Source of the DNA: Epilithonimonas arachidiradicis
GTDB taxonomy: Bacteria; Bacteroidota; Bacteroidia; Flavobacteriales; Weeksellaceae
Assembly (NCBI RefSeq): GCF_003610695.1
Contig: NZ_RAQH01000010.1
Span: 1 to 64,000 of the forward strand
Direction: 5' to 3'
DNA: 64,000 bases
The position numbers were made by a program, and so were the translations under genes. Shown piece by piece: positions 20,611 through 59,092 of this stretch (position 1 is the first letter of the stretch; every line of letters begins with the position of its first letter). The notes beneath the pieces are model-generated. The model saw only the letters and a list, made by a program, of their open reading frames with translations. It was not told the DNA's origin and did no database searches.

Positions 20611-20699
20611 TGATGCCCGGCTTGAACGGAGCTCATTTTTTGTGGCTGGAAAAGCAAAGGCAAAAAATAGCGGGAGTGGAAGGCGGATAAAGCTGCCCA
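20611..20699 (+). repeat. dispersed intergenic repeat family 1, copy A
   Basis: GCCCGGCTTGAACGG arm, then TTTTTTG ... CAAAAAA core and a GAGTGGAAGGCGGAT arm ending in GCTGCCC. Shares arms and core with copies at 27601, 32678 and 58984, and is closest to the 32678 copy. It lies between the O-methyltransferase start and the OmpA-gene terminator, outside any gene. Confidence 0.75.
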
Positions 20700-20703
20700 A
20701 ATA

Positions 20704-20730
20704 AAAAACCTCGCCATTTCTGACGAGGTT
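20704..20730 (-). terminator. intrinsic terminator of the OmpA-family gene
   Basis: Stem AACCTCG / CGAGGTT; read on the minus strand it is followed by a T6 tract. It lies 50 bases after the OmpA-family stop codon. Confidence 0.85.
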
Positions 20731-20781
20731 GAGTTTTACAAATTCTGAATGAGTAATCGATTATCATTCATCGTTTATGAT

Positions 20782-21618
20782 TTATTTCTTTACCGGAGCA
20801 ATGTCCATTAACTTCATAAACTCATCCAGTTTCGGCATAATGATGATTTCCGTTCTACGGTTTTCAGATCTTCCGGAAACTGAAGCGTTGGTCGTTTTCG
20901 GATTGTATTCGCCTCTACCACCCGCTGTAATTCGGTTAGGATTCACACCAAACTGATTCTGAAGAACTTTTGCAACCGCAGTCGCTCTAAGTGCCGATAA
21001 ATCCCAGTTGTCTCTTGGCGCATTGGCACTGCTTAGCGGCGTATTATCTGTGTTACCTTCAATCAAGACGCTGTAAGTATCGTAGTCGTTAATGACTTTA
21101 GCAACCTTAGCTAGAACGTCTGCTGCAGCCGGCTGGATGTCATACTTTCCAACTTGGTAAAGCATCTTGTCTGATAACGAAATCAGTACCACACCTTTTA
21201 GAACCTTTACATCAACATCCTGATCAGCCACATTGTCCAGAGAACGTTTCAGCTTGTTAGATAAAGCCAAATTCAAACTGTCGTTTCTGCTTTTTCCAGA
21301 AATCAATTGTTTAATATAAGCGTTGGAAGCGTTGATTTCTCCAACCAATTTATCGATGTTAGCAGAACCTTTTCCGGCATTGGACAGACAAGCATCAAGA
21401 CTGGATTTCAGTGCATTATTTTGACCAACCAATAAGTCGTTTTGGCTTTGAAGACCCGAGTTAGCGCTTTTCAAATCCTGGATTTGACGCATTCTTTCAC
21501 CCGCATCTTCTACACATTGCTTGTAGTTCAGATTAAGGGCGTCGAATTGTTTTTTGCTGACACACGATGCGAGGGAAAGTCCCACAGCCGCCATTGTCAA
21601 AATTTTAAATAATCTCAT
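20782..21618 (-). CDS. OmpA-family peptidoglycan-binding lipoprotein
   Basis: A 278-residue protein with a lipoprotein signal (LSLASC, Cys19). Residues ~25-130 form a helical coiled-coil-like stretch (QIQDLKSANSGLQSQNDLLVGQNNALKSSL contains the heptads). The C-terminal OmpA domain (~160-265) has VLIEGNTDNTPL, NWDLSALRATAVAKVL, RITAGGRGEYNP and NRRTEIIIMP, the peptidoglycan-binding signature. It tethers the outer membrane to the wall and is similar in layout to flagellar-stator-like and Pal-like lipoproteins, but no partner gene is close. The promoter and tilS promoter are back to back. Confidence 0.93.
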   Translation of the reverse strand: MRLFKILTMAAVGLSLASCVSKKQFDALNLNYKQCVEDAGERMRQIQDLKSANSGLQSQNDLLVGQNNALKSSLDACLSNAGKGSANIDKLVGEINASNAYIKQLISGKSRNDSLNLALSNKLKRSLDNVADQDVDVKVLKGVVLISLSDKMLYQVGKYDIQPAAADVLAKVAKVINDYDTYSVLIEGNTDNTPLSSANAPRDNWDLSALRATAVAKVLQNQFGVNPNRITAGGRGEYNPKTTNASVSGRSENRRTEIIIMPKLDEFMKLMDIAPVKK

Positions 21619-21675
21619 AGTAAAATATTTAATTTGTTCTTTATCTCTTTGTAAAGTGTAAATTCAAAATCGTTT

Positions 21676-21704
21676 CAAAAGTAAGGATTATAACTGTATC
21701 TTTG
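21676..21704. promoter_or_regulatory. back-to-back -7 boxes for the OmpA-family gene (minus) and tilS (plus)
   Basis: Minus-strand TACTTTTG at 21683-21676 and plus-strand TATCTTTG at 21697-21704 are both perfect TAnnTTTG matches, 13 bases apart and pointing away from each other. Confidence 0.55.
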
Positions 21705-21735
21705 TGCTTATAACTTATTATTTCGTTATAAAATT

Positions 21736-23031
21736 GTGTTAACTCTCTTAAAATTTCAGAATAATCTAAAACGATTTCTGAACCAACCGCATCAAAAAAC
21801 ATACCTTTTGGCTGTAAGTGGAGGCGTGGACTCCATGGTTCTTGCTGAGCTGTTCAGAATCCGCGATTTGAAATTCGAAGTAGCACACGTTAATTATCAT
21901 CTTCGTCATGAGGATTCTAATCTGGACCAAACACTGGTTTCTGACTTTTGTAAAAAACATAAAATTCCTTTTCATCTGTATGAAGTTTCGGAGAAAGATG
22001 AGCAGCCGGAAAATTCAATTCAAAATTGGGCGAGAGAATTACGTTATCGATTTTTCAGAGAAATTCAACAGAGAGAAAACCTTGATTTTTTAGTCACAGC
22101 ACATCATCTGAATGACCAGCTGGAAACATTTATTATGAATCTTTCCAAAGCAGCAGGAATCCGGGGTTTAAGTGGAATTCCGCAAAATGAAAATGGCATT
22201 ATTCGTCCGCTTCTTGATTTTTCTAAGGAAGAGATTTACGATTTTGCAAAACAGAACCAAATCGAATTTCGAGAAGATCAATCCAACCAAAAAACTGATT
22301 ATCTACGGAATAAAATCCGACATCATATTGTTCCGGAACTAGAAAAAATTAATCCAGATTTTCTAAATAATTTTTCAAATAGCATCAATTATATCAATCA
22401 GGCTAAAGATTTTATTGATGAATCTGTGAATGAGAAAATTGAAGCTCTCAAAATAAATTCCAGCGAAAATCAAATCATCATCGATAAACAAAAATTCTCA
22501 GAAGAATCTGAATTGATTCGATATGAAATTTTAAAACGATTTGGTTTCAATGATGAAAACGAAATGCAGAAAGTTCTGTCAGCTCAAACCGGAAGCTTAT
22601 TTTTTAATTCTGATTTTCAATTGATCATTAATCGGAATGAATTGATTTTTAAGGAAAAGATGGTAGATAGAAGATGGAGGATGGAAGAGATTAGGCTTGA
22701 AATTATTAAGAACGAAATCATTATTCCTGAAAATGTTAAGATTGAAATTCAAGAATTCGGAACTTGTTTTTGGAAAATTGATAAAAATAAGATTCAATTA
22801 CCTTTGAAATTGAGAAGAAAACAAGAAGGCGATTTGTTTTTTCCTATTGGAATGATTGGTAAAAAGAAAATTTCGAAGTTTTTTAAGGATGAAAAATTGT
22901 CTATTTTAGCGAAGCAAAAAATCTGGCTTCTTTGTGATGCTGATGAACGAATCTTAGGCGTATTGCCTTTTCGGCAGGACGGGAGATTTGTATCTGAAAA
23001 TTCGTCAGATTATTTGGAAGTTAGAGTTTAA
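21736..23031 (+). CDS. tilS: tRNA(Ile)-lysidine synthase
   Basis: The 431-residue enzyme converts C34 of the CAU-anticodon tRNA-Ile to lysidine with ATP and lysine, so it reads AUA. The PP-loop signature is SGGVDSMVL; HHLNDQLETFIMNLSKAAGIRGLSGIP and IRPLLDFSKEEI are typical N-domain elements, and the C-terminal region ends with RRKQEGDLFFPIGM and KISKFFKDEK, the tRNA acceptor-binding part. The start is GTG at 21736: the first in-frame ATG is inside the PP-loop. Its TAA stop is the first part of an ACCACAAAG repeat. Confidence 0.96.
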   Translation: MLTLLKFQNNLKRFLNQPHQKTYLLAVSGGVDSMVLAELFRIRDLKFEVAHVNYHLRHEDSNLDQTLVSDFCKKHKIPFHLYEVSEKDEQPENSIQNWARELRYRFFREIQQRENLDFLVTAHHLNDQLETFIMNLSKAAGIRGLSGIPQNENGIIRPLLDFSKEEIYDFAKQNQIEFREDQSNQKTDYLRNKIRHHIVPELEKINPDFLNNFSNSINYINQAKDFIDESVNEKIEALKINSSENQIIIDKQKFSEESELIRYEILKRFGFNDENEMQKVLSAQTGSLFFNSDFQLIINRNELIFKEKMVDRRWRMEEIRLEIIKNEIIIPENVKIEIQEFGTCFWKIDKNKIQLPLKLRRKQEGDLFFPIGMIGKKKISKFFKDEKLSILAKQKIWLLCDADERILGVLPFRQDGRFVSENSSDYLEVRV

Positions 23032-23106
23032 CCACAAAGAGCACAAGGATTTTACTAAGGTCACTAATTGTGTCCTTGTGAAGAAACTTTGTGACCTTTG
23101 TGGTTA
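23028..23106. repeat. interspersed repeat, ACCACAAAG family, copy 2
   Basis: Near-perfect inverted repeat: left arm TTTAACCACAAAGAGCAC, right arm CTTTGTGACCTTTGTGGTTA, loop around TAATTG. The TAA of the left arm is the tilS stop codon. Confidence 0.85.
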
Positions 23107-23130
23107 GAAAATAAAATTTAATATCAAAAA

Positions 23131-25203
23131 ATGAAAGATTTCAAACTGGTGTTTTCAACACTTTTTCTATTAATAATAACTATTTTCAATGCACAGATAA
23201 AAAATCCGGTCAAATTCAAATTTGATGTTAATCCTGTTGGGAAAGACGAATATGAAGCTGTTTTGACAGGAATAATTGAAGATAACTGGCACGTTTATTC
23301 TCAGGATTTGCCACCAGATTCAGGAATTCCAACTGAATTTAAAATTACTTCAAAACAGGGAATTCAATTGCTTGGAAAAGTTCAGGAAATAGGAAAAAAA
23401 CACGATGAGTTTTCGGAAGCTTTTGGTGCTCAGATTGTTTATTATTCCAATAAAGTCGTTTTTAAGCAAAAATTCAAACCAAAAGATGCAACAAAGCCAG
23501 CGACCATTACCGCAGAAATAATGTATCAGACTTGTAATGACCGCGTTTGTCTGGCACCAAATACCCTGGAATTTGAAAAACAAATCGAAGGCAGTAAAAC
23601 TGCAATTGCTCCTGACGAAAATGTTGAAAAAACAAAAGATACTGTTTACGAAGTTGCTCCGGCAGGACAAGTCGGAACAGTTCTGAAACCTACAAATATT
23701 GAAACGCCTGCTGTTGCCAAACAAGAAGGTTTGAAAGTTAATTCTCTGGACTTCAAAAATCCTTTGACTAATTGTGGAACTGTTCAGGAAAAACCAAATG
23801 ATGACAATTGGTTGGTTCTCGGTTTAGGATTCTTAGGCGGACTAATTGCGTTGTTGACACCTTGCGTTTTCCCAATGATTCCGTTGACGGTTTCGTTCTT
23901 TACAAAAGGGAACAAAGACAAAGCAAAAGGAAAAAGAGATGCGTTTATATACGGTTTCTTTATTTTGCTGATTTTCGTTTTATTGAGTATTCCGTTTCAT
24001 ATTATTGATGGAATTTCGGGAAATATTTTCAATCAGATTTCGACGAATATCTGGCTGAATTTATTTTTCTTCGCCATATTTTTATTCTTTGCATTGAGCT
24101 TTTTCGGATATTACGAAATTACATTGCCAAGTTCTATCGCTAACAAATCTTCCAAAGCTGAAGAAGCGGGCGGATTGATTGGGATTTTCTTTATGGCTTT
24201 GACTTTAGTGATCGTTTCGTTCTCTTGTACAGGTCCAATTTTAGGGAGTTTATTAGGAGGTGTTGTAGCTGGAGCGACTAATGTTCCAACATTGTTGACC
24301 TTTGCTTTGGCTGGTTTTGGATTGGCTTGGGCATTGGTTTTCGGATTGTTGGCGTTGTTTCCACAAGCTTTACAAAGTTTGCCAAAATCTGGCGGTTGGA
24401 TGAACACGGTGAAAGTTGTTCTTGGATTTATAGAGTTGGCTTTGGCGCTTAAATTCTTATCAAAAGCAGATTTGGTTTCCAAAACATTCTTGCTGAAAAG
24501 AGAATTATTCATCGTGCTTTGGATTATCATTGCCATTGGATTGGTTGTTTATTTATTCGGGAAAATCAGATTTCCGCACGATGATAAAAAGCCGAAAATC
24601 AGTTTAGGAAGAAGAATTCTTGGGGTTTTCGGAATTGTATTCATTGCATATTTGATTCAGGGATTGATTCCTTCTGACAAACCAAAGTTACAGATGCTGA
24701 GCGGGATTTTACCTCCGTTAAACGTTAGTTATTTCCATAAAGAAGAAGACGGCATTCTTGGTTTGAAACCTTATCACAATTACTTCGAAGCGATAGAAGT
24801 TGCGAAGAAAGAAAATAAACCAGTTTTGATAGATTTCACGGGTTATGGCTGTGAGAATTGCCGTAAAATGGAAGAGTTTGTTTGGAGCCAGGATGATGTT
24901 TTGCCAATTCTTCAGAATGATGTGATTATCGCTTCCGTTTATGTGGATGACAAAGAAGAATTGCCGGAAAACGAGCAAATCAAAATTGATATGGGCGAAG
25001 GTCAGATGAAAAAAGTGAAAACGATTGGCGACAAATGGAGTTTGTTCCAACAAGTTAATTTCAATAATAATTCTCAGCCACACTATGTTTTGGTAACGCC
25101 AGACCAAAAAGTGATTAATTCGCCGGTTTCAGGATATATGCCAAAAGAAGATTTCAAAAAATTCCTGAAATGCGGGATTGATTATTTTAAAAGTAGCAAT
25201 TAA
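23131..25203 (+). CDS. dsbD: thiol:disulfide interchange protein, DsbD-type
   Basis: A 690-residue protein with all three DsbD parts. A signal peptide leads to the periplasmic alpha domain with C135 and C140 in TCNDRVC. The eight-span membrane domain (~225-540) has the redox cysteines in LLTPCVFPMIP and SFSCTGPILG. The C-terminal thioredoxin-like gamma domain holds C574-ENC in TGYGCENC. It passes electrons from cytoplasmic thioredoxin to periplasmic disulfide-isomerase and cytochrome-maturation proteins. Flanked by its own terminator downstream and a repeat upstream, so it looks monocistronic. Confidence 0.95.
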   Translation: MKDFKLVFSTLFLLIITIFNAQIKNPVKFKFDVNPVGKDEYEAVLTGIIEDNWHVYSQDLPPDSGIPTEFKITSKQGIQLLGKVQEIGKKHDEFSEAFGAQIVYYSNKVVFKQKFKPKDATKPATITAEIMYQTCNDRVCLAPNTLEFEKQIEGSKTAIAPDENVEKTKDTVYEVAPAGQVGTVLKPTNIETPAVAKQEGLKVNSLDFKNPLTNCGTVQEKPNDDNWLVLGLGFLGGLIALLTPCVFPMIPLTVSFFTKGNKDKAKGKRDAFIYGFFILLIFVLLSIPFHIIDGISGNIFNQISTNIWLNLFFFAIFLFFALSFFGYYEITLPSSIANKSSKAEEAGGLIGIFFMALTLVIVSFSCTGPILGSLLGGVVAGATNVPTLLTFALAGFGLAWALVFGLLALFPQALQSLPKSGGWMNTVKVVLGFIELALALKFLSKADLVSKTFLLKRELFIVLWIIIAIGLVVYLFGKIRFPHDDKKPKISLGRRILGVFGIVFIAYLIQGLIPSDKPKLQMLSGILPPLNVSYFHKEEDGILGLKPYHNYFEAIEVAKKENKPVLIDFTGYGCENCRKMEEFVWSQDDVLPILQNDVIIASVYVDDKEELPENEQIKIDMGEGQMKKVKTIGDKWSLFQQVNFNNNSQPHYVLVTPDQKVINSPVSGYMPKEDFKKFLKCGIDYFKSSN

Positions 25204-25270
25204 TATGTTTTGAATAATTTTTTTAGTAATAATTAAATAAAATTTACAAATAGGAATAAATTTTGTATTC

Positions 25271-25310
25271 AAAAATCCATAATGATGACGAATCATTATG
25301 GATTTTTATT
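25271..25310 (+). terminator. intrinsic terminator after dsbD
   Basis: 16-bp stem AAAAATCCATAATGAT / ATCATTATGGATTTTT with a GACGA loop, followed by T-rich DNA. It lies 30 bases before exbD, whose promoter must then lie in the short stretch to 25340 or within the hairpin. Confidence 0.8.
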
Positions 25311-25340
25311 TTCTATTATTAACTACTAAAATCTAAAGCT

Positions 25341-25862
25341 ATGGCAGAAATACAAATTAAAGAGCAATCTAACGGAAAGAAAACTCAGAACAAGAAACCA
25401 ATTCGTGTGGATATGACGCCAATGGTGGATTTGGGATTTTTATTGATTACATTTTTTATGTTCACAACCAATTTCTCAAAACCAAACGCCATTAATTTTT
25501 CCAACCCTCCGAAAAATGATATTAAAGTTATAAGTGATATCGATATTAGAAATTCAATAACATTTATTCTAGGCAAAGATGGACGGGTTTTCTATTATCA
25601 GGCCGAGAAAAAAGATTTGAATGAGAGCAGCCTTACAGAAGTTTCTTTCGATAAAGCACAGGTTGCAAAAACTATCGAAGCTGCAAAAGCAAAAGCACCT
25701 AGAAAAGAAATCTTTACAGTCATTATAAAACCTACTGACGATTCGCAGTACAAAACAATGGTGGATATGTTAGACGAAATGACAATTACAAAATCCGAGC
25801 GCTACGGAATCTCAGAAATGAATGATAAAGAAAAGGAATTGTACCAAAATAAAGTTCAATAA
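25341..25862 (+). CDS. ExbD/TolR-family biopolymer transport protein
   Basis: A 173-residue protein with the family arrangement: a short basic cytoplasmic N-terminus, VDMTPMVDLGFLLITFFMF (one membrane span with the conserved Asp in PMVD, needed for proton coupling) and a periplasmic domain. It works with ExbB and TonB to energise outer-membrane import. No exbB or tonB gene lies in this window, so it is an orphan here; Bacteroidota often have several ExbD paralogues and the motor genes may be elsewhere. The periplasmic domain carries a YYQAEKKDLNESS insertion typical of the flavobacterial group. Confidence 0.92.
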   Translation: MAEIQIKEQSNGKKTQNKKPIRVDMTPMVDLGFLLITFFMFTTNFSKPNAINFSNPPKNDIKVISDIDIRNSITFILGKDGRVFYYQAEKKDLNESSLTEVSFDKAQVAKTIEAAKAKAPRKEIFTVIIKPTDDSQYKTMVDMLDEMTITKSERYGISEMNDKEKELYQNKVQ

Positions 25863-25881
25863 TTAATAAAAATTATTTTAT

Positions 25882-25908
25882 AAAGAGTGTCTCAGGACGC
25901 TCTTTTTT
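25882..25908 (+). terminator. intrinsic terminator after exbD
   Basis: AAAGAGTGTC / GACGCTCTTT with a TCAG loop (one G-U pair in RNA), then a T6 tract. Confidence 0.85.
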
Positions 25909-25936
25909 ATTTATTTTCGTGAGGAAAATTAAAACT

Positions 25937-26434
25937 ATGAGAAAACTAATTCCAGTTCTTATTCCTTTTTTAATCGTTTCTTGTAAAAAATCTGAAGAAA
26001 CTACAGCCTCGAAAGTTGATAGTGTAAAAATCATCGATTCAATCAATGCAGCCAGAACAAAAATTAATGACAGTATTCTCAGCAGTCGCGCCTACAAAGA
26101 TTTGTCTGGAACGCATTCTTTGACTCATGACCAAGTAAATGGTGCAGGAAAAATCACTTTTACAAAAATTGGACAAGACGAATACAAAATCTCTGGCGAG
26201 AATAAATCGGGAAGCAATTTTGTGAAAATCGAAGGCAGCGCAAGAATGACCTCACCGAAAAATCTTAAATTCGACGGAACCATCACGCAAAGCATTTCGG
26301 ATTATGACAATGGAAAACTGGATGTCAGAAAAGGCAAGAAAAATTTCTCTACAAAAGATGGTGGAAAAACGTTTAAGCTTTATGAATCCGTCAATAATGC
26401 AGGGTTTGGAGATAAAATAATAATTAAATTGTAA
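25937..26434 (+). CDS. unknown lipoprotein
   Basis: A 165-residue protein from ATG 25937, with lipobox IVSC (Cys16) after a hydrophobic N-terminus. The mature part is small and Lys/Ser-rich, with beta-strand-like HSLTHDQVNGAGKITFTKIGQDEYKI and a region GSARMTSPKNLKFDGTI that resembles lipocalin-like or DUF-type folds; no family is certain. The frame extends to GTG 25919, but a TATTTTCG -7-like box (25912-25919) overlaps that codon. Its stop is directly followed by the ATG of the hydrolase gene. Confidence 0.75.
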   Translation: MRKLIPVLIPFLIVSCKKSEETTASKVDSVKIIDSINAARTKINDSILSSRAYKDLSGTHSLTHDQVNGAGKITFTKIGQDEYKISGENKSGSNFVKIEGSARMTSPKNLKFDGTITQSISDYDNGKLDVRKGKKNFSTKDGGKTFKLYESVNNAGFGDKIIIKL

Positions 26435-27220: not shown

Positions 27221-27221
27221 A

Positions 27222-27587: not shown

Positions 27588-27600
27588 ATTTTTAGGAGCT

Positions 27601-27682
27601 ATTTCCCGCTATCCGCTATATCTTTTTCTTTTTTAGCAAAAAAAGAAAAAGGATGCCGCTACTATCGGGGCTAGGGATTTGT
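27601..27682 (-). repeat. dispersed intergenic repeat family 1, copy B
   Basis: Reverse orientation. On the minus strand it reads CTAGCCCCGATAGTAGCGG, then CATCCTTTTTC, T7GC / A6 hairpin core, and AGATATAGCGGATAGCGGG. It matches copy D (58984) most closely. It sits in a convergent gap just after the DUF1304 stop. Confidence 0.8.
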
Positions 27683-27709
27683 CGGTCAATCAAATTTTCA
27701 GTGGCAAAT

Positions 27710-27731
27710 AAAGTTTGGTTAATCAAACTTT
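27710..27731. terminator. weak hairpin in the convergent gap
   Basis: AAAGTTTG / CAAACTTT with a 6-base loop. T-rich flanks are present but no long U tract, so function as a terminator is uncertain. Confidence 0.35.
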
Positions 27732-27758
27732 ACTTCTTTAGCTTTGATCTTGATTTTA

Positions 27759-28763: not shown

Positions 28764-28811
28764 AAACGATTATTTGGGAATAATGAATTTTCAAAGGTAG
28801 AACTTTAAAAT

Positions 28812-28845
28812 AAAAAAATCGGCTCAAACTTGAACCGATTTTTAT
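28812..28845 (-). terminator. terminator of the T9SS cargo gene
   Basis: AAAAATCGG / CCGATTTTT with an imperfect inner TCAA/TTGA pairing; read on the minus strand it is followed by T-rich DNA. It separates the cargo gene from the nrnA-like gene. Confidence 0.75.
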
Positions 28846-28860
28846 TTGATTGATTAAAAT

Positions 28861-30616: not shown

Positions 30617-30622
30617 AAAAAT

Positions 30623-32658: not shown

Positions 32659-32677
32659 AATAATTAAATTTTTTATG

Positions 32678-32810
32678 GCAGCTTAATCCGCCTTCCGCTC
32701 CCAAACCTAACGGAGTGGTTCGACAAAGTCAATCTTTTTTGCAGAAGATTTAAGATTCAATAGAACTTGAATATAAGCAAAAAAGGATTTCCGCTCAAGT
32801 CGGGCTGCAG
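32678..32810 (-). repeat. dispersed intergenic repeat family 1, copy C
   Basis: Reverse orientation. On the minus strand: CTGCAGCCCGACTTGAGCGG, TCCTTTTTTGC, a 40-base variable loop, GCAAAAAAGATT, then GGGAGCGGAAGGCGGATT AAGCTGC. Fills most of the gap between the dehydrogenase and transaminase genes. Confidence 0.8.
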
Positions 32811-32848
32811 ATTCAACATAAAACCAAAAACCAACATCAATTATTAAA

Positions 32849-48543: not shown

Positions 48544-48560
48544 AACAGTTTCAAGTTTAA

Positions 48561-51500: not shown

Positions 51501-54500
51501 GGTTTTCACATCATTAAAAGCCACCAATTGGAATTGCAAATTCACTCTCGAGATACTTTCATCTTTCGGCATTACAGTTTCATATTCCAAAATTCCATTT
51601 TTGAAAGATTTGGTTTCCGTTACAGTTTCTCCTTTTCCATTTTGAATGAAAATTTGAACCAAAGCATCCGGAATTGCAGAGTAAACAAACACTTTTGCTT
51701 TTTCTCCTCTTTTGAAATCCTGCGTTGGTTTAATCACTTCCAAGAATGGATTTTGGTTTTGACCCAGCGATTTTTTATCCCAGACTTTGAAGAATTGCTC
51801 CGTTTTTATCGTGTCTTTTCCTTCGATATTGTAAAGTTGAAGTTTGTAAGTTCCGGCATTAAGTTTTCCTAAATCTAATTTGGTTGTCGGTTGTTTGTTG
51901 TCGGTTGACGGATTTTCTGTGCGGTTAATCAATTGTTTCTCTGACTTCCAGTTCTTCACATCATCATTTTTATCAAACCTGTCGTGAGAAAATTTCTGTA
52001 CAAATTCATTCTTAGATAATTGTGGCAAATCCTGAACAACAGAAGCAAAATTCTCTCTGAAAATTTGTTTTGGTTCTTCCAGTTTTTCCAATTTTACGTT
52101 GTAAGATTTTGGTAAAACCTGGTCGTTATAATTTTTGGTGTCAACTGTCAACTTCACAGCGTCATCAGAAAATATATTTCCGATTTCATTTGCCGTGATA
52201 TAATGAGAAACCGAAGCTACTTTCACGTTGGTGTTTGCAGATTGTGTTTCGCCATTGATGTCCGTCACAGAAGCATTGATGGCATAGTTATCAATTTGAA
52301 TCCCGTCCAAAGTTTCGTCTTTTTTCAATTCTACTTTGATGGTAAATTCGCCTTTCTCGTTGGTTTTCACATCGCCCAAAATCGAGTTTTCATTGTCATT
52401 TCCACGAGGATACCACCAGAAATAGCGCCAACGGATATTCTGCTTTTTGATTTCATAATTCACTGTTGAATTGCTCAGAGGAACACCTGAAAACATCATC
52501 GCTTTTCCTTTCAATTCAATAGTTTGACCGTATTTGTACTCGTCTTTTATTGGGTCAAAAATCACTTCAAATTTTGGACGTTTGTATTCCTCGACTTGAA
52601 AATCCGTATAGCCATTAATATGGAAACCAGATTTGTCATCATCATTATTCACTTCTATATTGAAACTTCCATTCAGTTTGTTTTTTGGAAGCGTAAAACT
52701 GCCATTCACGGAACCAAATGCATTAGTTGTGAGTTTTAAAGTTTGCAACTCTTCACCATTGGCATCGTGTAAAGTGATATTCAATGGAACTTTTTCCAAT
52801 GTTTTCACTTTCTGGGTTTCCCCATTGATTCCTGTTGCAATTGCTTTAAAATAAACAATTTGTCCAGGTCTGTAGATTTTTCTGTCAAGAAAAATTTGTG
52901 CAGATTCCTGATTTTCAGATTTGCTTCGGTTATTGTAATCATTATAACCATAAACATTTATCAGTGAATAATTGTTTCCATTTTTGATGAGGAAATTTCT
53001 GTAATATTCTTTGTTATCAGAATTCGGAATTTGGAAATTTCCGGAAGCATCCGTTTTGACAGAATGTTTTACAATTTGCTTTCCTCTCACATATTCAGCT
53101 ACTTCAAGAGTTTCGTTGGCAAATACTTTTCCGTTTTCATTATTCACCAATTTCAGAATATTAGCTTTTGGATTAGAATCATCTTTTTTGGAATAAATGA
53201 TTTTGGAATCAGAAACTATAAAATAGAAATTCCTTTGAACCGAATTTTCCACAACATATTCTGCCAAATAAATTCCTGCTGGAAGTGCTTTTAGCTCCAA
53301 AGATGTTTTATGCGTTTTAAAATCCGAAGACTCTGGTAAAGAGAATTGGTCTTTTCTTATCAATGTTTTTTTGACTTTTGCAAAAGGATTTTGATAAGAA
53401 TCGAAAACATAATTTAGAAAACCTGCGTTGTCATCAGCTTTGTAAATGTTGAGTGAAAAGTTTTTTACATTTTTTCCTTCTGCAACAATGTGAATTGGCT
53501 TGTTACTCTGCGTTTCATTTTCATAAAATATGTTTAGCTGAGGATTTTTAATTTGATTTTCTTTGTTCTTAATGTTATTTAGAAACTTAGATTTTGGGAA
53601 CATTTTCTTCGCATCATTTATCCAAATCAAGGCCAATTTGTAATCTTGTTTTTGCTGAAGAAGTTCAATCATATCATCAATAATCAGGACTTTGTAATCG
53701 CCTTTTACAGATTCGTCTTTGACCAATTTTTCAAGTTGCGCGAATTTGTCTTTGCAATTATTTAATTCACAATTATAATTGATTTTTTGATGTTTGAAGT
53801 ACAACTGAGCATTTCCAGAAAGTGAAGCAGTTTCCGAATCAAAAATCGAATTAATTTTGGTCGAATTCACTTTCAATTCGTTCGGTGTGAAGAGATTTTG
53901 ATTTCTTAAGAACTCAATATAATTGTAATTGTACCAATCAGATAGCGTTGGGAAATATTCAAGATTGTCAGATGCATCAAATATTTCACTGTACTTCTGC
54001 ATTTGGATTTTCTTCAAAGCAGCATTTTCTTTTTCTAAATCCGAATAATTCTTCAATAAATAATTTTTAAAATCCAGCTTGCTCCAGGTTTCGATTTGAG
54101 ATAAGTCGGCGTTATCGATATTGGTTTTCTGATTGATTTTCCAAGAATTATTCTGATAATAATCTTTGATGAATTCCAACGTCAGAAGATGAAACAATTG
54201 TCTTTCATCACCTTTCAATTTGCTTTCGGTGTTCTGAAGCTTCGAAAAGAATTTAGAATTTTCATCGTTTTTTGTATTATCCCTAGTCTGTTTTGTAATA
54301 CTGAATTCAGCTTTCAGAGACTTTATAATTTGTATCGCATTATTATCTTTCAAAGCTTGGTTTTGTATTTCCAGGATGATGGGAAGATTGGATTTGTAAG
54401 TGCCTTTTTTATAGTTGTCTTCAATTTTTTTCCATTGCTGGTCGTAATAGTTTTGAGCGGAAAAATTCATAGTAGCAAATATTAATAAGAATACTAATAA

Positions 54501-54518
54501 GGATTTTAGGATTTTCAT
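48561..54518 (-). CDS. alpha-2-macroglobulin-like protein with a TSP3-type calcium-repeat insert
   Basis: A 1985-residue exported protein (signal peptide to ~21). MG2-type repeats are visible at ~545-640 (IFLDRKIYRPGQIVYFKAIATG; LTTNAFGSVNGSFTLPKNKLNG; FQVEEYKRPKFEV) and ~660-800. The A2M core lies at about 1200-1290 (NLNETAFFYPNLLTDKDG...). It is followed by an alpha-toroid helical domain with WYQGYPSSYYTSLYILKNL and a C-terminal receptor-like domain. No CxEQ thioester site was found, so it should trap or stiffen without covalent attachment. A DIDGDGIANSDDACP stretch (~1121-1140), a TSP3/OmpA-linker calcium motif, is inserted before the A2M core. No PBP1c gene is adjacent, unlike the classical yfhM pair. 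Confidence 0.88.
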   Translation of the reverse strand: MKILKSLLVFLLIFATMNFSAQNYYDQQWKKIEDNYKKGTYKSNLPIILEIQNQALKDNNAIQIIKSLKAEFSITKQTRDNTKNDENSKFFSKLQNTESKLKGDERQLFHLLTLEFIKDYYQNNSWKINQKTNIDNADLSQIETWSKLDFKNYLLKNYSDLEKENAALKKIQMQKYSEIFDASDNLEYFPTLSDWYNYNYIEFLRNQNLFTPNELKVNSTKINSIFDSETASLSGNAQLYFKHQKINYNCELNNCKDKFAQLEKLVKDESVKGDYKVLIIDDMIELLQQKQDYKLALIWINDAKKMFPKSKFLNNIKNKENQIKNPQLNIFYENETQSNKPIHIVAEGKNVKNFSLNIYKADDNAGFLNYVFDSYQNPFAKVKKTLIRKDQFSLPESSDFKTHKTSLELKALPAGIYLAEYVVENSVQRNFYFIVSDSKIIYSKKDDSNPKANILKLVNNENGKVFANETLEVAEYVRGKQIVKHSVKTDASGNFQIPNSDNKEYYRNFLIKNGNNYSLINVYGYNDYNNRSKSENQESAQIFLDRKIYRPGQIVYFKAIATGINGETQKVKTLEKVPLNITLHDANGEELQTLKLTTNAFGSVNGSFTLPKNKLNGSFNIEVNNDDDKSGFHINGYTDFQVEEYKRPKFEVIFDPIKDEYKYGQTIELKGKAMMFSGVPLSNSTVNYEIKKQNIRWRYFWWYPRGNDNENSILGDVKTNEKGEFTIKVELKKDETLDGIQIDNYAINASVTDINGETQSANTNVKVASVSHYITANEIGNIFSDDAVKLTVDTKNYNDQVLPKSYNVKLEKLEEPKQIFRENFASVVQDLPQLSKNEFVQKFSHDRFDKNDDVKNWKSEKQLINRTENPSTDNKQPTTKLDLGKLNAGTYKLQLYNIEGKDTIKTEQFFKVWDKKSLGQNQNPFLEVIKPTQDFKRGEKAKVFVYSAIPDALVQIFIQNGKGETVTETKSFKNGILEYETVMPKDESISRVNLQFQLVAFNDVKTESVDLKIADSKDDLKIETVTFRDKLQPEQKEKWTIKISGADKEKINAEVLANMYDKSLDQFASNSWSWQRFYSPFYQSSYELRNGLEQQYYNGKTNYLNTNNVRIPQFNWFNGAILFGSDIDGDGIANSDDACPTVPGTAEYKGCPKPKAMYASEVEMSVSAPAMKLQGRAAGVKIDDLATTQDMKGIITSKDKDLDKIPVRQNLNETAFFYPNLLTDKDGNVSFEFTSPEALTQWKLMFLAHTKDARSAILEKSVVTQKEFSITPNYPRFLREGDELNLQSKLSSLVNQKLNGVAQLQILDAFTNEDISEKFGISQLTAVPGYNKEQSFSLAENGNTSTTWKLKIPNNVSSIIIKIVAKAGSFSDGEQKAIAVLPNRMLVIDALPIFVKEGQTKSFTLENLKNSDSKTLTNVSNTLELTTNPIWEIMFALPSLKNDTNNSADVIFNKWFADVLASEIFKANPKLKTVFDEYQSKGLLTSNLEKNQELKQLLLDETPWVLESKNETEQMQKLARLFDANTMRNSINDDWSELVKLQNPDGGFSWYQGYPSSYYTSLYILKNLGRINEWLKGNLSDYQNSEQKEMVKKLVSYVDNEVNKYWKTDKDNVWNNFVLDYLDTRHYWEKEYALKAKGATLKSSVISKAKTAKITDFTFFGLHRSALLFNNYGLKEVSKKLMTYLKETSTETETQGVYWKQNLNDWGWYSSKTVNHAGALEAFQKLTPTDETLIEEMKIWLITQKEVNSWGNSRGTAEVIFTILNSGKSWTSVESDKAEINWGAKDLYPVPQTSATGYFKTSVNSDKLDKNLATVSIKKESAGIVKGGLFWQYYEDLDKIKSSESYISISKELYKKVKTENGEQLVKINENSPIKVGDKVTVRMILNTDRNMEFIHLKDMRASGFEPLDVISGYQWKNNLGYYQSTKDASTNFYIEYMPKGKYVFEYDYVANASGKFSNGITTLQNYYAPQMNAHTQGTKVEIKE

Positions 54519-54674
54519 AAGTGACTTTTATTTTTTAATCAGTGAACCGAATCACGTTATAAAGATGCATTGTTTTATCGTAAGGTTGGAAAGAAAAAAA
54601 TATTTTTTTGAAAAATTTAAAGCTTATTGACTTTCTATTTATTTAGAACATTTTTTCCGACATTTGTTAAATCA

Positions 54675-55445
54675 ATGTCGTTTCTAAATTTAGCAAAAAA
54701 ATATGTCATCGACAGTCAGATTTATGTTTCATTAATGGGAACTTTTCTGGCTGCCTATTTTATGCTGGAACAAAACATATTTCGCTGGCCAAGTTTGCTT
54801 TTGATTTTCATTACCTACTTCAGCGGTTATCTTTACACCAAGTATCAGTACGATAAAAAGAAATTCATCAAAATTCTGATTTTTAATTCGATTTGTGGGA
54901 TTTTAAGTTTTTGTTTGATTGTTTTTAATCATAACGAAATCAGACTGTTGAAATGGGCTGTGATTGTCATCATTGGTTTGCTTTACAATTCTTTTTTTCT
55001 CGATAAATTCATTAGGAAAATTCCGTTGCTCAAGATTTTTTACGTTGGCTTGACCTGGGCTTTGATTAACTCCTGGCTCATTCTTCCGGAATTTAATTGG
55101 GGGATTTTTCTCATTACTTGGTTGTTCATTTCGGCTTTGGTTTTGCCTTTTGATATCCGAGATATGAACAGTGACGACGTTGTGACTTTTCCGATTCTGA
55201 TTGGTGTCCAGAGGACTAAATTTCTGGCCTATTTATTAGTTTTTATTTCAGGTCTATTGAGTGTTTTCTATCTGGATTTAGTTTTTGCGTTGTGTTTTTT
55301 CCTGACTACAATTATCACATTTTTATTAATTTATTTTTCTGAAAATAATAATCGGGAAGCTTATTTTAGTTTTTTGGTAGAAAGCTGTAGTGGACTTCCT
55401 TTGTTATATCTTTTGGCTTACAAATTGATATTGCAGTTTTGTTAA
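54675..55445 (+). CDS. UbiA-like membrane prenyltransferase-family protein
   Basis: From ATG 54675 the protein has 256 residues; a 16-residue extension to TTG 54627 is doubtful. Seven to eight hydrophobic spans and the second Asp motif LPFDIRDMNSDD followed by TFPILIGVQRTKFL fit the UbiA superfamily. The usual first motif NDxxDxxxD is not visible (that loop reads YTKYQYDKKK), so prenyl-diphosphate chemistry is uncertain. It lies 9 bases upstream of the POTRA/barrel gene and may be co-transcribed. Divergent from the macroglobulin gene. Confidence 0.7.
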   Translation: MSFLNLAKKYVIDSQIYVSLMGTFLAAYFMLEQNIFRWPSLLLIFITYFSGYLYTKYQYDKKKFIKILIFNSICGILSFCLIVFNHNEIRLLKWAVIVIIGLLYNSFFLDKFIRKIPLLKIFYVGLTWALINSWLILPEFNWGIFLITWLFISALVLPFDIRDMNSDDVVTFPILIGVQRTKFLAYLLVFISGLLSVFYLDLVFALCFFLTTIITFLLIYFSENNNREAYFSFLVESCSGLPLLYLLAYKLILQFC

Positions 55446-55454
55446 AATATCCGA

Positions 55455-57254
55455 ATGTTCAATAATAAATCTATTCTCCTGATCATCGTCTTTTTAAGTT
55501 TGTTTTCCGTTGCTAAGGCGCAGGAGAAAAAAGATTCGATTTATTACAAAATTGAAGAATTCTCGGACAGGAGAAAATTTACAAAATTCATTCATCGCTT
55601 TATATTTCGTCGGGAAGCTGATTCGGCTTCTGTTAAATCGAGAACAGAAAAGCAATCTCAGGAATCTTATGACGGAAAATTTATCCGAAATGTAAAAATT
55701 GAAACCATTGACCCGTTTGGTTATAATACAAAGGAGAAAAAAGAAAAGTCAAAATGGTATGATTGGTTTACGAATCATCTCCATTCCAACACCCGGATTT
55801 CTGTGGTCAATAATTATCTGCTTTTCAAAAAAGGTGAAGAATATAATGCTCAGAAATTATATGAATCTGAACGTCTGCTTCGCCAGATGGATTTTGTTAA
55901 CCGTGTCAATATTGCCGTTGAAAACAGCTCCAGCGATTCTATTGATGTGGTAGTGAAGGTTTTGGATTCCTGGAGCCTGAAACCAAGATTCAGCTATTCC
56001 GGAAGCAAGATAGGATTGGGTTTCACCGAAGAAAACCTGCTTGGACTCGGTCACGAAGTTGATTTTCTTTACCGTAATGATTCTAAGGAAAAACAGGATT
56101 ATTTATACGGAAGTTATCTGGCGAATAATCTCTTCGGAAGTTATATCAATGCGCAGATTTTGGGAGAGCGTGATTTTTTTAAAAATGAGCGAATCAATCT
56201 GAGTGCAAGACGTGATTTTTTCTCACCGCTTACGCAATGGGCTGGTGGTTTCACTTTCGAATATTTTATGCGAAACGTTTTGTTGCCTTTGGAAGATGTT
56301 CAAACATTTCCTGAAGTTCAAATCAAGGTTTATAGCCAGGATTTGTGGGGTGGTTATCAGATTCCGGTTTCAAAAAATAATGAAGAGCGGGTTTCCAGCA
56401 ATATCGCTTTAATAGGGCGATTCACAAATTATCAGTACAAAGACAGTCCCGGGATTGACCAGTTTCAATATTTCCGTTCCTACAATAGTTTCTTGGCTTC
56501 GGCAGGATTTATCCAGAGAAAATTTTCGGTGGAGAAGCAGGTTTTCCAATATGATTTGCCTGAGGATATTCCATACGGAAATGCTTTCAATGTCACTGCA
56601 GGATTGCTTTCCAGAAGCAAGGAAGTAGTTCCTTACGCCGGGCTTTCCGCTGCTTACGGGGATTTTACGAAAATAGGATACTTCAATATCAAAGCACAGT
56701 TTGGAAGATTTTTTAACGAAGAAAAAATCAACCGTGATGCTTTTCGGCTAGACGGAACTTATTTTACCAACGTGATGGATTGGAAGTTTGCCAAGGTTCG
56801 TCATTTCTTTTCTCCAACATTAGCTTTAGGAAATCCTCAAAATAATTATTCTTACAAAGACCGAATCAACCTTTCTGCAAGAGACGAGTTTCCGGTTTAC
56901 GATTACGATTACATAGGAACAAAAAAATTGGTTTTAAGATATCAATTGCAGTTTTTCATCAACAAAACCTGGAAAAATTTTCATTTCAGCCCATATTTGA
57001 CAACGGCTGTTGGCTGGCTGGGAATGTCTGATGAAAAATTGCTAAAAACCAATGTCAACACAAAAGTTGGAATCGGGGTTCTGATCAACAATCCTTATCT
57101 GGTTTTCAACAGGATTCAGGTTTCTTTTATGTATTATCCGAAGGTGCCGTTTGACAACAGTTCTGTTTTTGACTTCAACAGCTACAGAAACAATATGATG
57201 CCGATGAATACTTTTGCGGCGGACATTCCGCATTTTGTGAACTTCGGAAATTGA
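55455..57254 (+). CDS. outer-membrane protein with POTRA-like N-terminus and beta-barrel (Omp85-like)
   Basis: A 599-residue exported protein (LFSVAKAQ signal). After a charged segment comes FIRNVKIETIDPFGYNTK...NNYLLFKKGEEYNAQKLYESERLLRQMDFVNRVNIAVENSSSDSIDVVVKVLD, which fits the end of one POTRA domain with its hallmark hydrophobic strand. The remainder, ~195-599, is barrel-like with GIGVLINNPYLVFNRIQVSFMYYP at the end. Similar to BamA/TamA-family single-POTRA relatives of Bacteroidota. Its client is unknown. Confidence 0.8.
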   Translation: MFNNKSILLIIVFLSLFSVAKAQEKKDSIYYKIEEFSDRRKFTKFIHRFIFRREADSASVKSRTEKQSQESYDGKFIRNVKIETIDPFGYNTKEKKEKSKWYDWFTNHLHSNTRISVVNNYLLFKKGEEYNAQKLYESERLLRQMDFVNRVNIAVENSSSDSIDVVVKVLDSWSLKPRFSYSGSKIGLGFTEENLLGLGHEVDFLYRNDSKEKQDYLYGSYLANNLFGSYINAQILGERDFFKNERINLSARRDFFSPLTQWAGGFTFEYFMRNVLLPLEDVQTFPEVQIKVYSQDLWGGYQIPVSKNNEERVSSNIALIGRFTNYQYKDSPGIDQFQYFRSYNSFLASAGFIQRKFSVEKQVFQYDLPEDIPYGNAFNVTAGLLSRSKEVVPYAGLSAAYGDFTKIGYFNIKAQFGRFFNEEKINRDAFRLDGTYFTNVMDWKFAKVRHFFSPTLALGNPQNNYSYKDRINLSARDEFPVYDYDYIGTKKLVLRYQLQFFINKTWKNFHFSPYLTTAVGWLGMSDEKLLKTNVNTKVGIGVLINNPYLVFNRIQVSFMYYPKVPFDNSSVFDFNSYRNNMMPMNTFAADIPHFVNFGN

Positions 57255-57297
57255 TTTTCTTGCTGAGAAGTTTTATCTTTACATAAATTTTTGAGTG

Positions 57298-57537
57298 ATG
57301 GAAAATATTGAAGTATTAAGAAGCAAACTGGTAGAAAGAATCTTTTCTACTACGAATGTCAATTTCTTACAAGCCGTTGAAAATCTTTTTTTGTCTGTTC
57401 AGCCTGAAGAAGATGCAAAATATATTTTGTCCAAAAGTCAGAAAGAAATGATTCTAGTTGCGGAAGAGGATATTAAATATGGACGAACTATTTCCGACGA
57501 GGAGTTAAGAAAATTGGATGAAGAATGGATGAAGTAA
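57298..57537 (+). CDS. antitoxin of a ParE/RelE-type module
   Basis: From ATG 57298 (a GTG one codon earlier) it has 79 residues. Acidic and helical, with MILVAEEDIKYGRTISDEELRKLDEEWMK at the C-terminus, which is the usual toxin-wrapping segment of this antitoxin type. There is no clear DNA-binding domain, so autoregulation is uncertain. It overlaps the toxin gene by 13 bases, the classic coupling of such modules. Confidence 0.75.
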   Translation: MENIEVLRSKLVERIFSTTNVNFLQAVENLFLSVQPEEDAKYILSKSQKEMILVAEEDIKYGRTISDEELRKLDEEWMK

Positions 57538-57833
57538 AGGTCATTTGGACAACGCTTGCAAGAAAACAGAGAAACGCCATTTTCGATTACTGGAATAATA
57601 GAAATAAAAGTAATCGTTATTCTATAAAACTAAACCTTACTATTTATCAAAAAATTGATTTATTAAAGTCTAATCCTTTAAGTGGTATTGAAACCAATTT
57701 CGAACCATATCGAATTTTGCATTTTGAAAATTACGGATTGGTCTATAGATTAGAAAAAGATTTACTCTACATTATTTCTGTGTGGGATAATCGTCAAAAT
57801 CCGAGTAAACTGAAAAAACTTTTGGGATTATGA
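57525..57833 (+). CDS. ParE/RelE-family toxin
   Basis: A 102-residue protein with the RelE/ParE fold: VIWTTLARKQRNAIFDYWNNRN, LLKSNPLSGIETNFEPYRILHFENYGLVYRLEKDLLYIISVWDNRQNP. The C-terminal strand VWDNRQNP is typical for ParE-type members. Toxins of this fold either poison DNA gyrase or cleave mRNA on the ribosome; I cannot tell which. Its TGA overlaps the recF ATG by 4 bases (ATGA), unusual for a toxin and a core replication gene. Confidence 0.85.
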   Translation: MDEVKVIWTTLARKQRNAIFDYWNNRNKSNRYSIKLNLTIYQKIDLLKSNPLSGIETNFEPYRILHFENYGLVYRLEKDLLYIISVWDNRQNPSKLKKLLGL

Positions 57834-58912
57834 TTATCAACAAACTTTCACTCATCAATTTCAAAAGCCACTCGGAACAATCATTCGAATTTTCGCCTCA
57901 AATCAATTGTTTTGTAGGAAATAATGGAGTAGGGAAGACTAATGTTCTGGATGCCCTTCATTATCTTTCTGTCGGTAAAAGTTTTTTGGGAAATTCTGAC
58001 CTCAACAATGTGAAATCTAATGAAGATTTTTTTGTTATTGAATCCGAAATCCAGAATGATGAGAAAGAAGATATCATCAAAATTCTTCAGCCAAAAGAGT
58101 CTAAAAAAGTCATTAAAAAGAATGATAAAAGCTACGACAGATTAGCTGACCACATTGGTTATTTGCCAAGTGTGATGATTTCGCCTTACGATTCCAATTT
58201 GATTTCCGATTCGGGAGAAAGTCGTAGAAAGTTTTTGGATGCGATGATTTCTCAGACCGATTCTTCTTATCTTTTTGATTTGATTCAGTATCAGAAAACC
58301 GTTCAGCAGAGAAATGCTTTGTTGAAATATTTTGCGAAGAACAGGACGTTTGACAAAGATTCTCTGGTGATTTATGATGACCCGATTTCAAGCTTCGGAA
58401 CAAGGATTTTCGAGAAGAGAAAAGAATTTATTGAAAAACTGAATCCAATTGTTCAGCATTTTTACGAAATCATTTCAGGCGGAAAAGAACTCGTAAATGT
58501 TATTTATGAATCTCATCTTTTGAATGACGATTTTCACAATCTCTTATCTCAAACTATCGATAAAGACAGAGCTTTGACCTATACTTCCAAAGGAACTCAT
58601 AAAGATGATTTGTTATTTGAAATGAATGGTAATTCAATCAAAAAAATAGGTTCACAAGGTCAGCAGAAATCATTTTTAATTTCATTAAAATTAGCTCAAA
58701 TCAACAGAATCAAAGAACTGACCGGAAAGTCTCCAATCCTTCTTCTGGACGATATTTTTGACAAGCTAGATGATACCAGAGTTTCTCAATTAATCGAATT
58801 AGTTAACAAAGAAAGTTTCGGTCAAATTTTCATTACTGATACGCACAAAGAACGAACAGAAAACGTTGTAAAACGCATTAACGAAGAAAGTAGAATTTTT
58901 GAAATATCATAA
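57830..58912 (+). CDS. recF: DNA replication and repair protein RecF
   Basis: A 360-residue SMC-like ATPase. Walker A GNNGVGKT (30-37), KSFLGNSDLNNV, signature GSQGQQKSFLISLKLAQ, and Walker B ILLLDDIFDKLDDTR. It loads RecA at gaps together with RecO and RecR. The start overlaps the toxin stop in an ATGA junction, so translation may be coupled to the toxin-antitoxin operon. dnaA, dnaN and gyrB, its usual partners, are not nearby. Confidence 0.96.
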   Translation: MIINKLSLINFKSHSEQSFEFSPQINCFVGNNGVGKTNVLDALHYLSVGKSFLGNSDLNNVKSNEDFFVIESEIQNDEKEDIIKILQPKESKKVIKKNDKSYDRLADHIGYLPSVMISPYDSNLISDSGESRRKFLDAMISQTDSSYLFDLIQYQKTVQQRNALLKYFAKNRTFDKDSLVIYDDPISSFGTRIFEKRKEFIEKLNPIVQHFYEIISGGKELVNVIYESHLLNDDFHNLLSQTIDKDRALTYTSKGTHKDDLLFEMNGNSIKKIGSQGQQKSFLISLKLAQINRIKELTGKSPILLLDDIFDKLDDTRVSQLIELVNKESFGQIFITDTHKERTENVVKRINEESRIFEIS

Positions 58913-58943
58913 AAGCCCATTCAGGATTCTGAATGGGTTTTTC
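58912..58943 (+). terminator. terminator after recF
   Basis: AAAGCCCATTCAG / CTGAATGGGTTTT with a GATT loop and T tract. Confidence 0.85.
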
Positions 58944-58983
58944 CATTTTTTATATTGTTGAAAAGAAATACAAAGCCTGAACC

Positions 58984-59092
58984 TAGCCCTGATGGGAACG
59001 GCATCCTTTTTTGTTATTGCGATTGTTGAAAAGTTCAACAGATTGCTTCACGTTGTTCGCAATGACAAAAAAGATATAGTGGACAGCAGGTT
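58984..59092 (+). repeat. dispersed intergenic repeat family 1, copy D, carrying a nested inverted repeat
   Basis: Plus orientation: TAGCCCTGATGGGAACGG, CATCCTTTTTTG, loop, CAAAAAAGATATAGTGGACAGCAGG. The loop (59013-59066) is itself an inverted repeat: GTTATTGCGA at one end and TCGCAATGAC at the other, with an inner TGTTGAA/TTCAACA stem and AGATTGCTTCA. This inner unit belongs to the GTCATTGCGA class of small palindromic repeats, so one repeat sits within another. Confidence 0.8.

What the first reader, a model, noticed from the sequence alone, without database searches (positions are those of the whole stretch)
20611..59092. A dispersed intergenic repeat (four copies) with a conserved T6G...CA6 core and GCGG-containing arms
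Copies at 20611-20699, 27601-27682 (reverse), 32678-32810 (reverse) and 58984-59092 share an arm with an A/G-GCGG or ACGG element followed by TCCTTTTTTG, then a variable loop, then CAAAAAA and a purine-rich arm containing AGCGGA or AGTGGA and GGCGG or GCGGG. Copies A and C share GAGTGGAAGGCGGAT-type arms, copies B and D share GATATAGCGGATAGCGGG-type arms, so there are at least two subfamilies. All four lie outside genes. None carries a coding frame. Roles as an RNA, a transcription stop or a mobile palindrome (REP/MITE-like) are all open.
Basis: seen in the sequence. Interest (0 to 1): 0.7.

Follow-up and report, generated by a model that had tools for sequence, protein, structure and literature searches.

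The report
Dispersed Flavo-1-type hairpin repeats
The four repeats belong to a known but unexplained family of bacterial hairpin sequences (Flavo-1) and a divergent sister group of it, and in this genus they look more like mobile DNA hairpins oriented with chromosome copying than like genes for a small RNA.

Summary
Copies B and D are Rfam RF01705, Flavo-1 RNA, in print since 2010 without a function. Copies A and C are a divergent sister type: A scores 19.3 bits against a cut-off of 42, C was not listed. Both types share one hairpin plan with compensated changes. The genome (Epilithonimonas, by inference) holds at least 133 distinct places. The A/C type was found in all 22 sampled relatives of the genus and in none of 16 from other genera.

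New here: (1) sites are inherited across species while the hairpin tip switches between unrelated cassettes at the same site. (2) In three chromosomes of the genus the copies are oriented with replication: 73/101, 37/49 and 65/91 lagging, genes 53-57% leading. In two chromosomes of another family this is absent (21/41) or weak (65/109, p 0.056). (3) The 3' end often sits just behind a stop codon (49 of 94 gene ends within 30 bases; 5' side 3 of 57).

I favour a REP/MITE-like DNA element placed on single-stranded DNA at the fork. No enzyme is shown; the own genome has no Y1 transposase match. RNA and mRNA 3'-end roles stay open.

The parts
20602..20702 (+). Copy A, sister (A/C) type, between the start of an O-methyltransferase gene and the end of an OmpA-domain gene, antisense to both
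   Evidence: model R1 86.5 bits (a training row); RF01705 only 19.3 bits; gene names from Pfam
27589..27684 (-). Copy B, Flavo-1 proper, between a convergent alpha/beta-hydrolase gene side and the end of a DHH-family gene
   Evidence: RF01705 79.1 bits at 27598-27676; model R2 101.9 bits (a training row)
32672..32818 (-). Copy C, sister (A/C) type, between an aldehyde dehydrogenase gene and a class-III aminotransferase gene, antisense to both
   Evidence: model R1 81.7 bits (a training row); not listed by Rfam at E up to 5
58973..59108 (+). Copy D, Flavo-1 proper, between convergent ORFs
   Evidence: RF01705 60 bits at 58981-59097; model R2 74.1 bits (a training row)
59013..59066 (+). Tip cassette of copy D: hairpin of the TTATTGCGA...CGCAATGA kind, also seen as tip in other copies of both types
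   Evidence: sequence; tips compared
32702..32729 (-). Insert in the 3' arm of copy C (ACTTTGTCGAACCACTCCGTTAGGTTTG), present at the same spot in other copies such as L052, L060, L061
   Evidence: sequence
20704..20734 (-). Terminator-like hairpin with T-tract of the OmpA-domain gene, lying between that gene and copy A; a neighbour, not part of the element
   Evidence: sequence, sub-threshold PsrR1 alignment shows the hairpin, kept in relatives with and without the element

Best explanation
A family of roughly 100-base imperfect palindromes, Flavo-1 plus a sister type, that acts mainly at the DNA level as a non-autonomous REP/MITE-like element. One strand folds into a hairpin: short outer stem, A/T-rich 3' bulge, C/G stem, two purine-rich mismatched internal loops, T-run/A-run upper stem, exchangeable tip. 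Shown: dispersal, fold with compensated changes, inheritance at fixed sites, presence/absence between species, tip exchange at one site, orientation along replication in three chromosomes of the genus, 3' end often next to a stop codon. [quoted passage not shown] most copies are now inherited vertically; tips and inner arms are exchanged by recombination between copies.
For: At least 133 distinct places in the genome. Paired cells 99.0% and 96.3% against 28-56% and 31-43% with slid partners, covariation score above all 500 shuffles. Orthologous sites filled in 15 of 19 (B), 11 of 18 (A) and 4 of 17 (C) genomes, others empty, degenerate or a remnant. Different tips at one site. Lagging orientation 73/101, 37/49, 65/91 with skew arcs set without the elements; 50 of the 60 best copies, and 16 of 19 in convergent or divergent gene contexts. 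No gene-strand rule for the B/D type, as PMC9723704 noted for F. psychrophilum (passage). IS200/IS605 elements, which fold as single strands, are known to follow replication direction (PMC5371812, passage). TnpA-REP-like genes of relatives are flanked by hairpins ending AGCGGGG (13 in 6 of 14 loci, 0.35 expected) or CCCCGAT..GCGG, like the Flavo-1 arms.
Against: No PF01797 match in the own genome or in G016, both rich in the element. The TnpA-REP-like genes are not flanked by the element: one weak R2 match about 1.8 kb away in 14 loci (R1 not run there). Strong Y1 genes: no R1 match and one weak partial R2 match in 12 loci. The end-motif likeness was noticed after looking and is short. Polarity is absent in G186 and weak in G202, and contigs of the own genome do not differ significantly (p 0.09). 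No target-site duplication was shown; a clean empty-site join was seen only at site A in L089/L092. Most sites look old, so mobility itself was not observed. G-T over A-C in the pairs, 21 to 9, would fit an RNA equally.
Confidence: 0.48

Rival explanations
1. It is a structured RNA, as Rfam files it: an sRNA or a part of longer transcripts, folding from the annotated strand.
For: Compensated changes and constant mismatched loops on one strand; G-T cells outnumber A-C cells 21 to 9 on the annotated strand; RNA folding favours the annotated strand in 68 of 74 A/C copies; Rfam type Gene; sRNA.
Against: More than a hundred copies in the genome; tips differ wholly between orthologous copies; RNA folding favours the annotated strand in only 41 of 74 B/D copies; PMC9723704 saw hits in sense or antisense of transcribed regions and many outside them (passage); an RNA role does not predict replication polarity.
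Confidence: 0.17
2. It is a hairpin kept at mRNA 3' ends, protecting or ending transcripts that run into it, mostly from its 3' side.
For: Gene ends within 30 bases on the 3' side in 49 of 94 cases, often 7-10 bases, with no separate intrinsic terminator in those 49 short gaps. A/C copies between codirectional genes are antisense to them 41 to 9. Convergent context 24 of 72 for B/D.
Against: No T-tract behind the stem in 141 of 148 copies. Copies between divergent genes exist (13 of 71 A/C, 11 of 72 B/D). Gene starts show the same 5'/3' asymmetry (within 30 bases 13 of 49 on the 3' side, 3 of 86 on the 5' side), so part of the pattern may only mean that the unit extends further on its 5' side (about 38 bases at site A). 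Elsewhere a separate terminator lies before the element (7 of 17 and 11 of 40 on the 5' side; 10 of 49 and 12 of 45 on the 3' side). Does not explain replication polarity.
Confidence: 0.2
3. It is a selected polar chromosome site (fork, topology or segregation signal), or the polarity comes from orientation-dependent loss of the more stable hairpin from the lagging-strand template.
For: Orientation bias independent of neighbouring gene direction and somewhat stronger in the best-scoring third (65 of 82 against 54 of 79 in the lowest). DNA folding favours the annotated strand in 73 of 74 A/C and 59 of 74 B/D copies, and that strand is mostly not the lagging template if positive GC skew marks the leading strand (recalled rule, arcs).
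Against: The bias is only about 73% (175 of 241) and missing or weak in G186 and G202. Sites come and go between species. The A/C set with the larger stability gap is not clearly more biased than the G022 set.
Confidence: 0.1

Closest known systems
Flavo-1 RNA (Rfam RF01705; Weinberg et al. 2010, PMC2864571, passages seen)
   Same: B and D are members by Rfam's own cut-off; A and C share the stem plan, bulge and T-run/A-run upper stem
   Different: A/C arms differ (GCCCGRCTTGARCGG ... GGAGCGGAAGGCGGATTAAGCTGCC) and mostly score under the cut-off; DNA-level behaviour (polarity, tip exchange) is not part of the description
REP / REPIN elements with TnpA-REP (RAYT) transposases; subclass 2.6 of PMC6006769 (passages and section 25 seen)
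   Same: Over a hundred intergenic palindromes per genome; hairpin ends CCCCGAT..GCGG / AGCGGGG resemble those beside subclass-2.6-like genes of relatives
   Different: No Y1 transposase match in the own genome; transposase genes not flanked by the element
IS200/IS605 elements (IS608), PMC5371812 (passages seen)
   Same: One-strand hairpins; orientation follows replication
   Different: No transposase inside, no autonomous copy seen; polarity partial and limited to the genus tested
Integron attC sites (recalled)
   Same: Single-strand hairpin with constant mismatched stem and variable terminal structure
   Different: No attC boxes noticed by eye, no cassette array; integrase not searched for

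Membership tests
Flavo-1 RNA (RF01705), copies B and D | Covariance-model score at or above Rfam's cut-off of 42 bits | tested here: met
   79.1 and 60 bits
Flavo-1 RNA (RF01705), copies A and C | Covariance-model score at or above Rfam's cut-off of 42 bits | tested here: not met
   A 19.3 bits; C not listed up to E 5. Related all the same: R2 finds both at E about 1e-5
Flavo-1 RNA as an RNA | Transcribed as a defined RNA | not testable with these tools
   No expression data here; PMC9723704 found no consistent relation to transcripts (passage)
REP element with RAYT | Many intergenic palindromic copies | tested here: met
   133 distinct places, lower bound; hairpin support
REP element with RAYT | Cognate TnpA-REP gene in the genome, flanked by the repeat | tested here: not met
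   No PF01797 match in the own genome; no flanking element at 14 TnpA-REP-like genes of relatives apart from one weak match about 1.8 kb away
MITE | Terminal inverted repeats with target-site duplication and a parent transposon | tested here: inconclusive
   Inverted arms yes; one clean empty site without a clear duplication (site A, L089/L092); parent transposon not found
Mobile element | Presence and absence at orthologous sites | tested here: met
   Filled B 15 of 19, A 11 of 18, C 4 of 17; direction of change (gain or loss) not settled
IS200/IS605-like single-strand element | Orientation follows replication | tested here: inconclusive
   Yes in G014, G004, G022; no in G186, weak in G202
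Intrinsic transcription terminator | Stem followed at once by a T-tract | tested here: not met
   7 of 148 copies, both strands counted
Integron attC site | R and L boxes and an integron integrase | not tested
   Only a recalled likeness of plan

The most novel reading that the evidence does not exclude
Flavo-1 is misfiled as an RNA: it is a replication-oriented, single-strand-folding DNA element of Bacteroidota whose stem stays at fixed chromosomal sites for the age of a genus while its tip is a swappable cassette, so that a genome carries a store of exchangeable hairpin tips.
Probability: 0.3. Interest if true: 0.72.

Novelty: new variant of a known kind. Interest (0 to 1): 0.5.

Why it matters
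Flavo-1 is counted among the most abundant families filed as bacterial sRNA (PMC9029176, passages) but no function is given in the three papers that name it here. Replication polarity, tip exchange at fixed sites and the nearness of the 3' end to stop codons turn an unexplained RNA entry into DNA-level hypotheses that can be tested, and would change how such annotations in Flavobacteriales genomes are read. In the own genome 61 of 133 distinct places are over Rfam's cut-off, so the current model shows less than half of the family there.

Tried and rejected
Promoter inside the conserved stretch 5' of the motif: no Bacteroidota -7/-33 pattern (recalled) was seen there by eye. Partner enzyme among strong Y1_Tnp genes of relatives: flanked by their own, different hairpins; no R1 match and one weak partial R2 match (L238, 16.1 bits) in 12 loci. 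Weak, TnpA-REP-like Y1_Tnp matches: 14 loci, one R2 match of 22.9 bits about 1.8 kb from the gene (L326) and two low A/T-rich ones (L321), R1 not run. Intrinsic terminator: not met. dnaA at the strand switch: not so in G014, G004 or G022. GC skew at fourfold sites was too noisy in 15-20 kb samples, so plain skew was used, which also reflects gene direction. Single-linkage clustering of tips lumped short tips together, so kinds were named by hand patterns, which leave 44 of 148 unclassed; kinds at sites A and B were read by eye.

Results against me that limit the counts: numbers of pairs changed on both sides did not exceed shuffles (they did); covariation scores did in all four. Alignments are fitted to the models. 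Lists were cut: G014 101 of 125 and G004 49 of 68 matches were listed, G202 109 of 111, G186 41 of 41, G022 91 of 91; searches scored only the best candidates per genome. The ORF caller is simple; gene starts are rough. The 5'/3' gap asymmetry also holds for gene starts.

Literature searches. Three papers held 'Flavo-1'. In what I saw (listings, abstract starts and passages) none described polarity, tip exchange or the second type; supplements were not seen.
Full report
Observation. The four segments were read on the strands given. A Rfam scan of the window gives RF01705 (Flavo-1) for copy B (27598-27676, 79.1 bits) and copy D (58981-59097, 60 bits), both above the cut-off of 42. Copy A reaches 19.3 bits in a search of its own 201 bases and C was not listed in the window up to E 5. 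Covariance models from own-genome copies, R1 for the A/C type (24 rows) and R2 for the B/D type (21 rows), find the other type weakly but clearly: R2 on A and C E 8.6e-6 and 1.4e-5, R1 on B E 2.3e-6, D not listed up to 0.1.

Abundance and range. In the own genome (3.65 Mb, 15 contigs) RF01705 has 91 matches at E <= 0.001, 61 over the cut-off, with 150 of 1003 candidates scored. The A/C arm pattern has 72 places against 1 reversed. Merged, these are 133 distinct places. Records found with the window's DHH-family gene and 89-96% like it are Epilithonimonas, Chryseobacterium and unnamed relatives (L077-L094), so the genus is an inference. RF01705 is found in 27 of 39 genomes of the relatives set, own genome included, and in 97 of 246 genomes of the order, 28 of 74 genera, 0 of 14 controls, with only 18 candidates scored per genome. 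R1 at E <= 1e-9 is found in 23 of 39: the own genome and all 22 others of its genus, none of 16 from other genera. Other genera of the family are barely sampled there; 14 further loci of 13-21 kb (L095-L108) gave no R1 match up to E 0.1, and R2 gave two weak ones (L104, L106).

Fold. 99.0% (A/C) and 96.3% (B/D) of cells pair, against 28-56% and 31-43% when partners are slid. In the 74-row sets the figures are 98.6% and 99.0% against 27-52% and 27-43%, but those alignments are fitted to the models. Covariation scores exceed all 500 shuffles in all four; the number of pairs changed on both sides exceeds them only. B/D pair 22/139 occurs as A-T 25, G-C 24, T-A 24. Internal-loop positions are nearly invariant and purine-rich, and columns 30 and 131 change in equal numbers (C 55, A 18; A 55, G 18). 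That such mismatches form sheared pairs is recalled, not tested. G-T cells outnumber A-C cells 21 to 9 on the annotated strand. DNA folding favours the annotated strand in 73 of 74 A/C and 59 of 74 B/D copies, RNA folding in 68 of 74 and 41 of 74.

Orthologous sites. Gene order around the three loci is kept in nearly all of L077-L094. Site B, between the DHH gene and the hydrolase gene, is filled in 15 of 19 (window included); L088, L089 and L092 have none and L085 has 2.4 kb of other sequence. The 3' flank of the element is recognisably shared in 13 of the 15, by eye. Site A has a model match in 11 of 18, a degenerate copy in L077, a short remnant in L087, nothing in L078, L079, L088, L089, L092. 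Site C is filled in 4 of 17 (L077 only weakly, 30.8 bits). At site B the tips are of at least five unrelated kinds, at site A of at least three; sister species L081 and L082 differ at site A. Five of eight named tip kinds occur in both sister types (T/A-run 12 A/C and 19 B/D; TCATTGCGA kind 6 and 13; TTCTA kind 17 and 7; GGAAAAGC kind 12 and 1; AGCAAAGCGGAAC kind 3 and 1); 44 of 148 tips are unclassed. At site A the inner arms change type along with the tip, so part of the covariation may be replacement of a whole inner segment.

Genes around. With a simple ORF caller 143 of 144 copies were placed (signs are gene directions 5' and 3' of the element in its own frame): A/C -- 41, -+ 13, ++ 9, +- 8; B/D +- 24, -- 21, ++ 16, -+ 11. 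The 3' side meets a gene end within 30 bases in 49 of 94 cases, the 5' side in 3 of 57; for gene starts the figures are 13 of 49 and 3 of 86. So stop codons are often next to the 3' end, but the 5' side is roomy for starts as well, which fits a unit that extends further 5' (about 38 bases more at site A, compared with L089/L092). None of the 49 short gaps holds a separate intrinsic terminator. In other copies a terminator lies between gene and element. The element lacks a T-tract behind its stem in 141 of 148.

Replication polarity. Matches on single-contig relatives were split by arcs set from the GC skew of 20 sampled stretches a genome, without using the elements: G014 (R1) 73 of 101 lagging, Fisher p 7.7e-5; G004 (R1) 37 of 49, p 5.6e-4; G022 (R2, which at low scores also picks up A/C copies) 65 of 91, p 5.8e-5; genes are 54%, 57% and 53% leading. 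Arcs fitted to the elements alone give permutation p 0.005, 0.010 and 0.010. Of the 60 best copies 50 are lagging, and 16 of 19 between convergent or divergent genes (p 0.004), so the bias is not a shadow of gene direction. By score the lagging share is 65 of 82, 57 of 80 and 54 of 79 from best to lowest third. Against generality: in two chromosomes of another family, with RF01705, 21 of 41 (G186) and 65 of 109 (G202, p 0.056); contigs of the own genome do not differ significantly (p 0.09). That positive skew marks the leading strand is a recalled rule; dnaA is not at the switch points.

Enzyme. PF01797 (Y1_Tnp) matches 24 of 39 genomes, 21 of the 22 relatives in the genus, but not the own genome or G016. 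Strong matches are proteins of about 150 aa flanked by their own hairpins. Weak ones of about 180-200 aa with a YIHQNP-type motif resemble subclass 2.6 of PMC6006769, described there as mostly in Bacteroidetes, flanked by atypical secondary structures with copies elsewhere (section 25). Their hairpins end in AGCGGGG (13 in 6 of 14 loci, 0.35 expected) or CCCCGAT..GCGG (L315), like the Flavo-1 arms. The longer pattern occurs six times in 1.78 Mb of sampled sequence: five read as Flavo-1 by eye, one as such a hairpin (L154). This is a lead only: it was noticed after looking, it is short, and the element does not flank those genes.

Mechanism. I commit to a REP/MITE-like DNA element that folds on one strand and was placed at replication forks, now mostly inherited, with tips exchanged between copies (0.48). 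An mRNA 3'-end hairpin (0.2) and a structured RNA (0.17) remain serious; a selected polar site or orientation-dependent loss 0.1.

Known and new. Flavo-1 is known: PMC2864571 Table 1 marks it 'y' for RNA and 'n' for cis-regulation and switch (passage); PMC9723704 found no clue to function (passage); PMC9029176 lists it among abundant sRNAs without function (passages). In what I saw of searches-81 nothing reports polarity, tip exchange or the second type. Hence new variant of a known kind, interest 0.5.

Noticed in passing
L036 1510-1577, L045 1510-1585, L041 about 1501-1589: A further arm type of the family in the own genome with CCC/GGG stem sides swapped (ends near GCAATAGGG ... CCCGRCCCGAGC).
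   Followed up: no
L087 site A (15200-15384): Apparent remnant of a lost element: outer ends remain around a tiny GGATC...GGATCC hairpin.
   Followed up: no
L233, L234, L238-L244: Short Y1 transposase genes with YIKNQ/YIENQ-type motifs in relatives, each flanked by its own hairpin repeats (for example GGCTTTAGCC), not by Flavo-1.
   Followed up: partly
L315-L326: TnpA-REP-like genes with YIHQNP-type motif, flanked by hairpins ending AGCGGGG or CCCCGAT..GCGG.
   Followed up: partly
G014, G004, G022: dnaA lies well away from the GC-skew and element-strand switch points.
   Followed up: no
window 7362-7465 and 19056-19158: Sub-threshold Rfam matches (Qrr, Phe_leader, rimP and others) that are probably strong intergenic hairpins such as terminators.
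   Followed up: no
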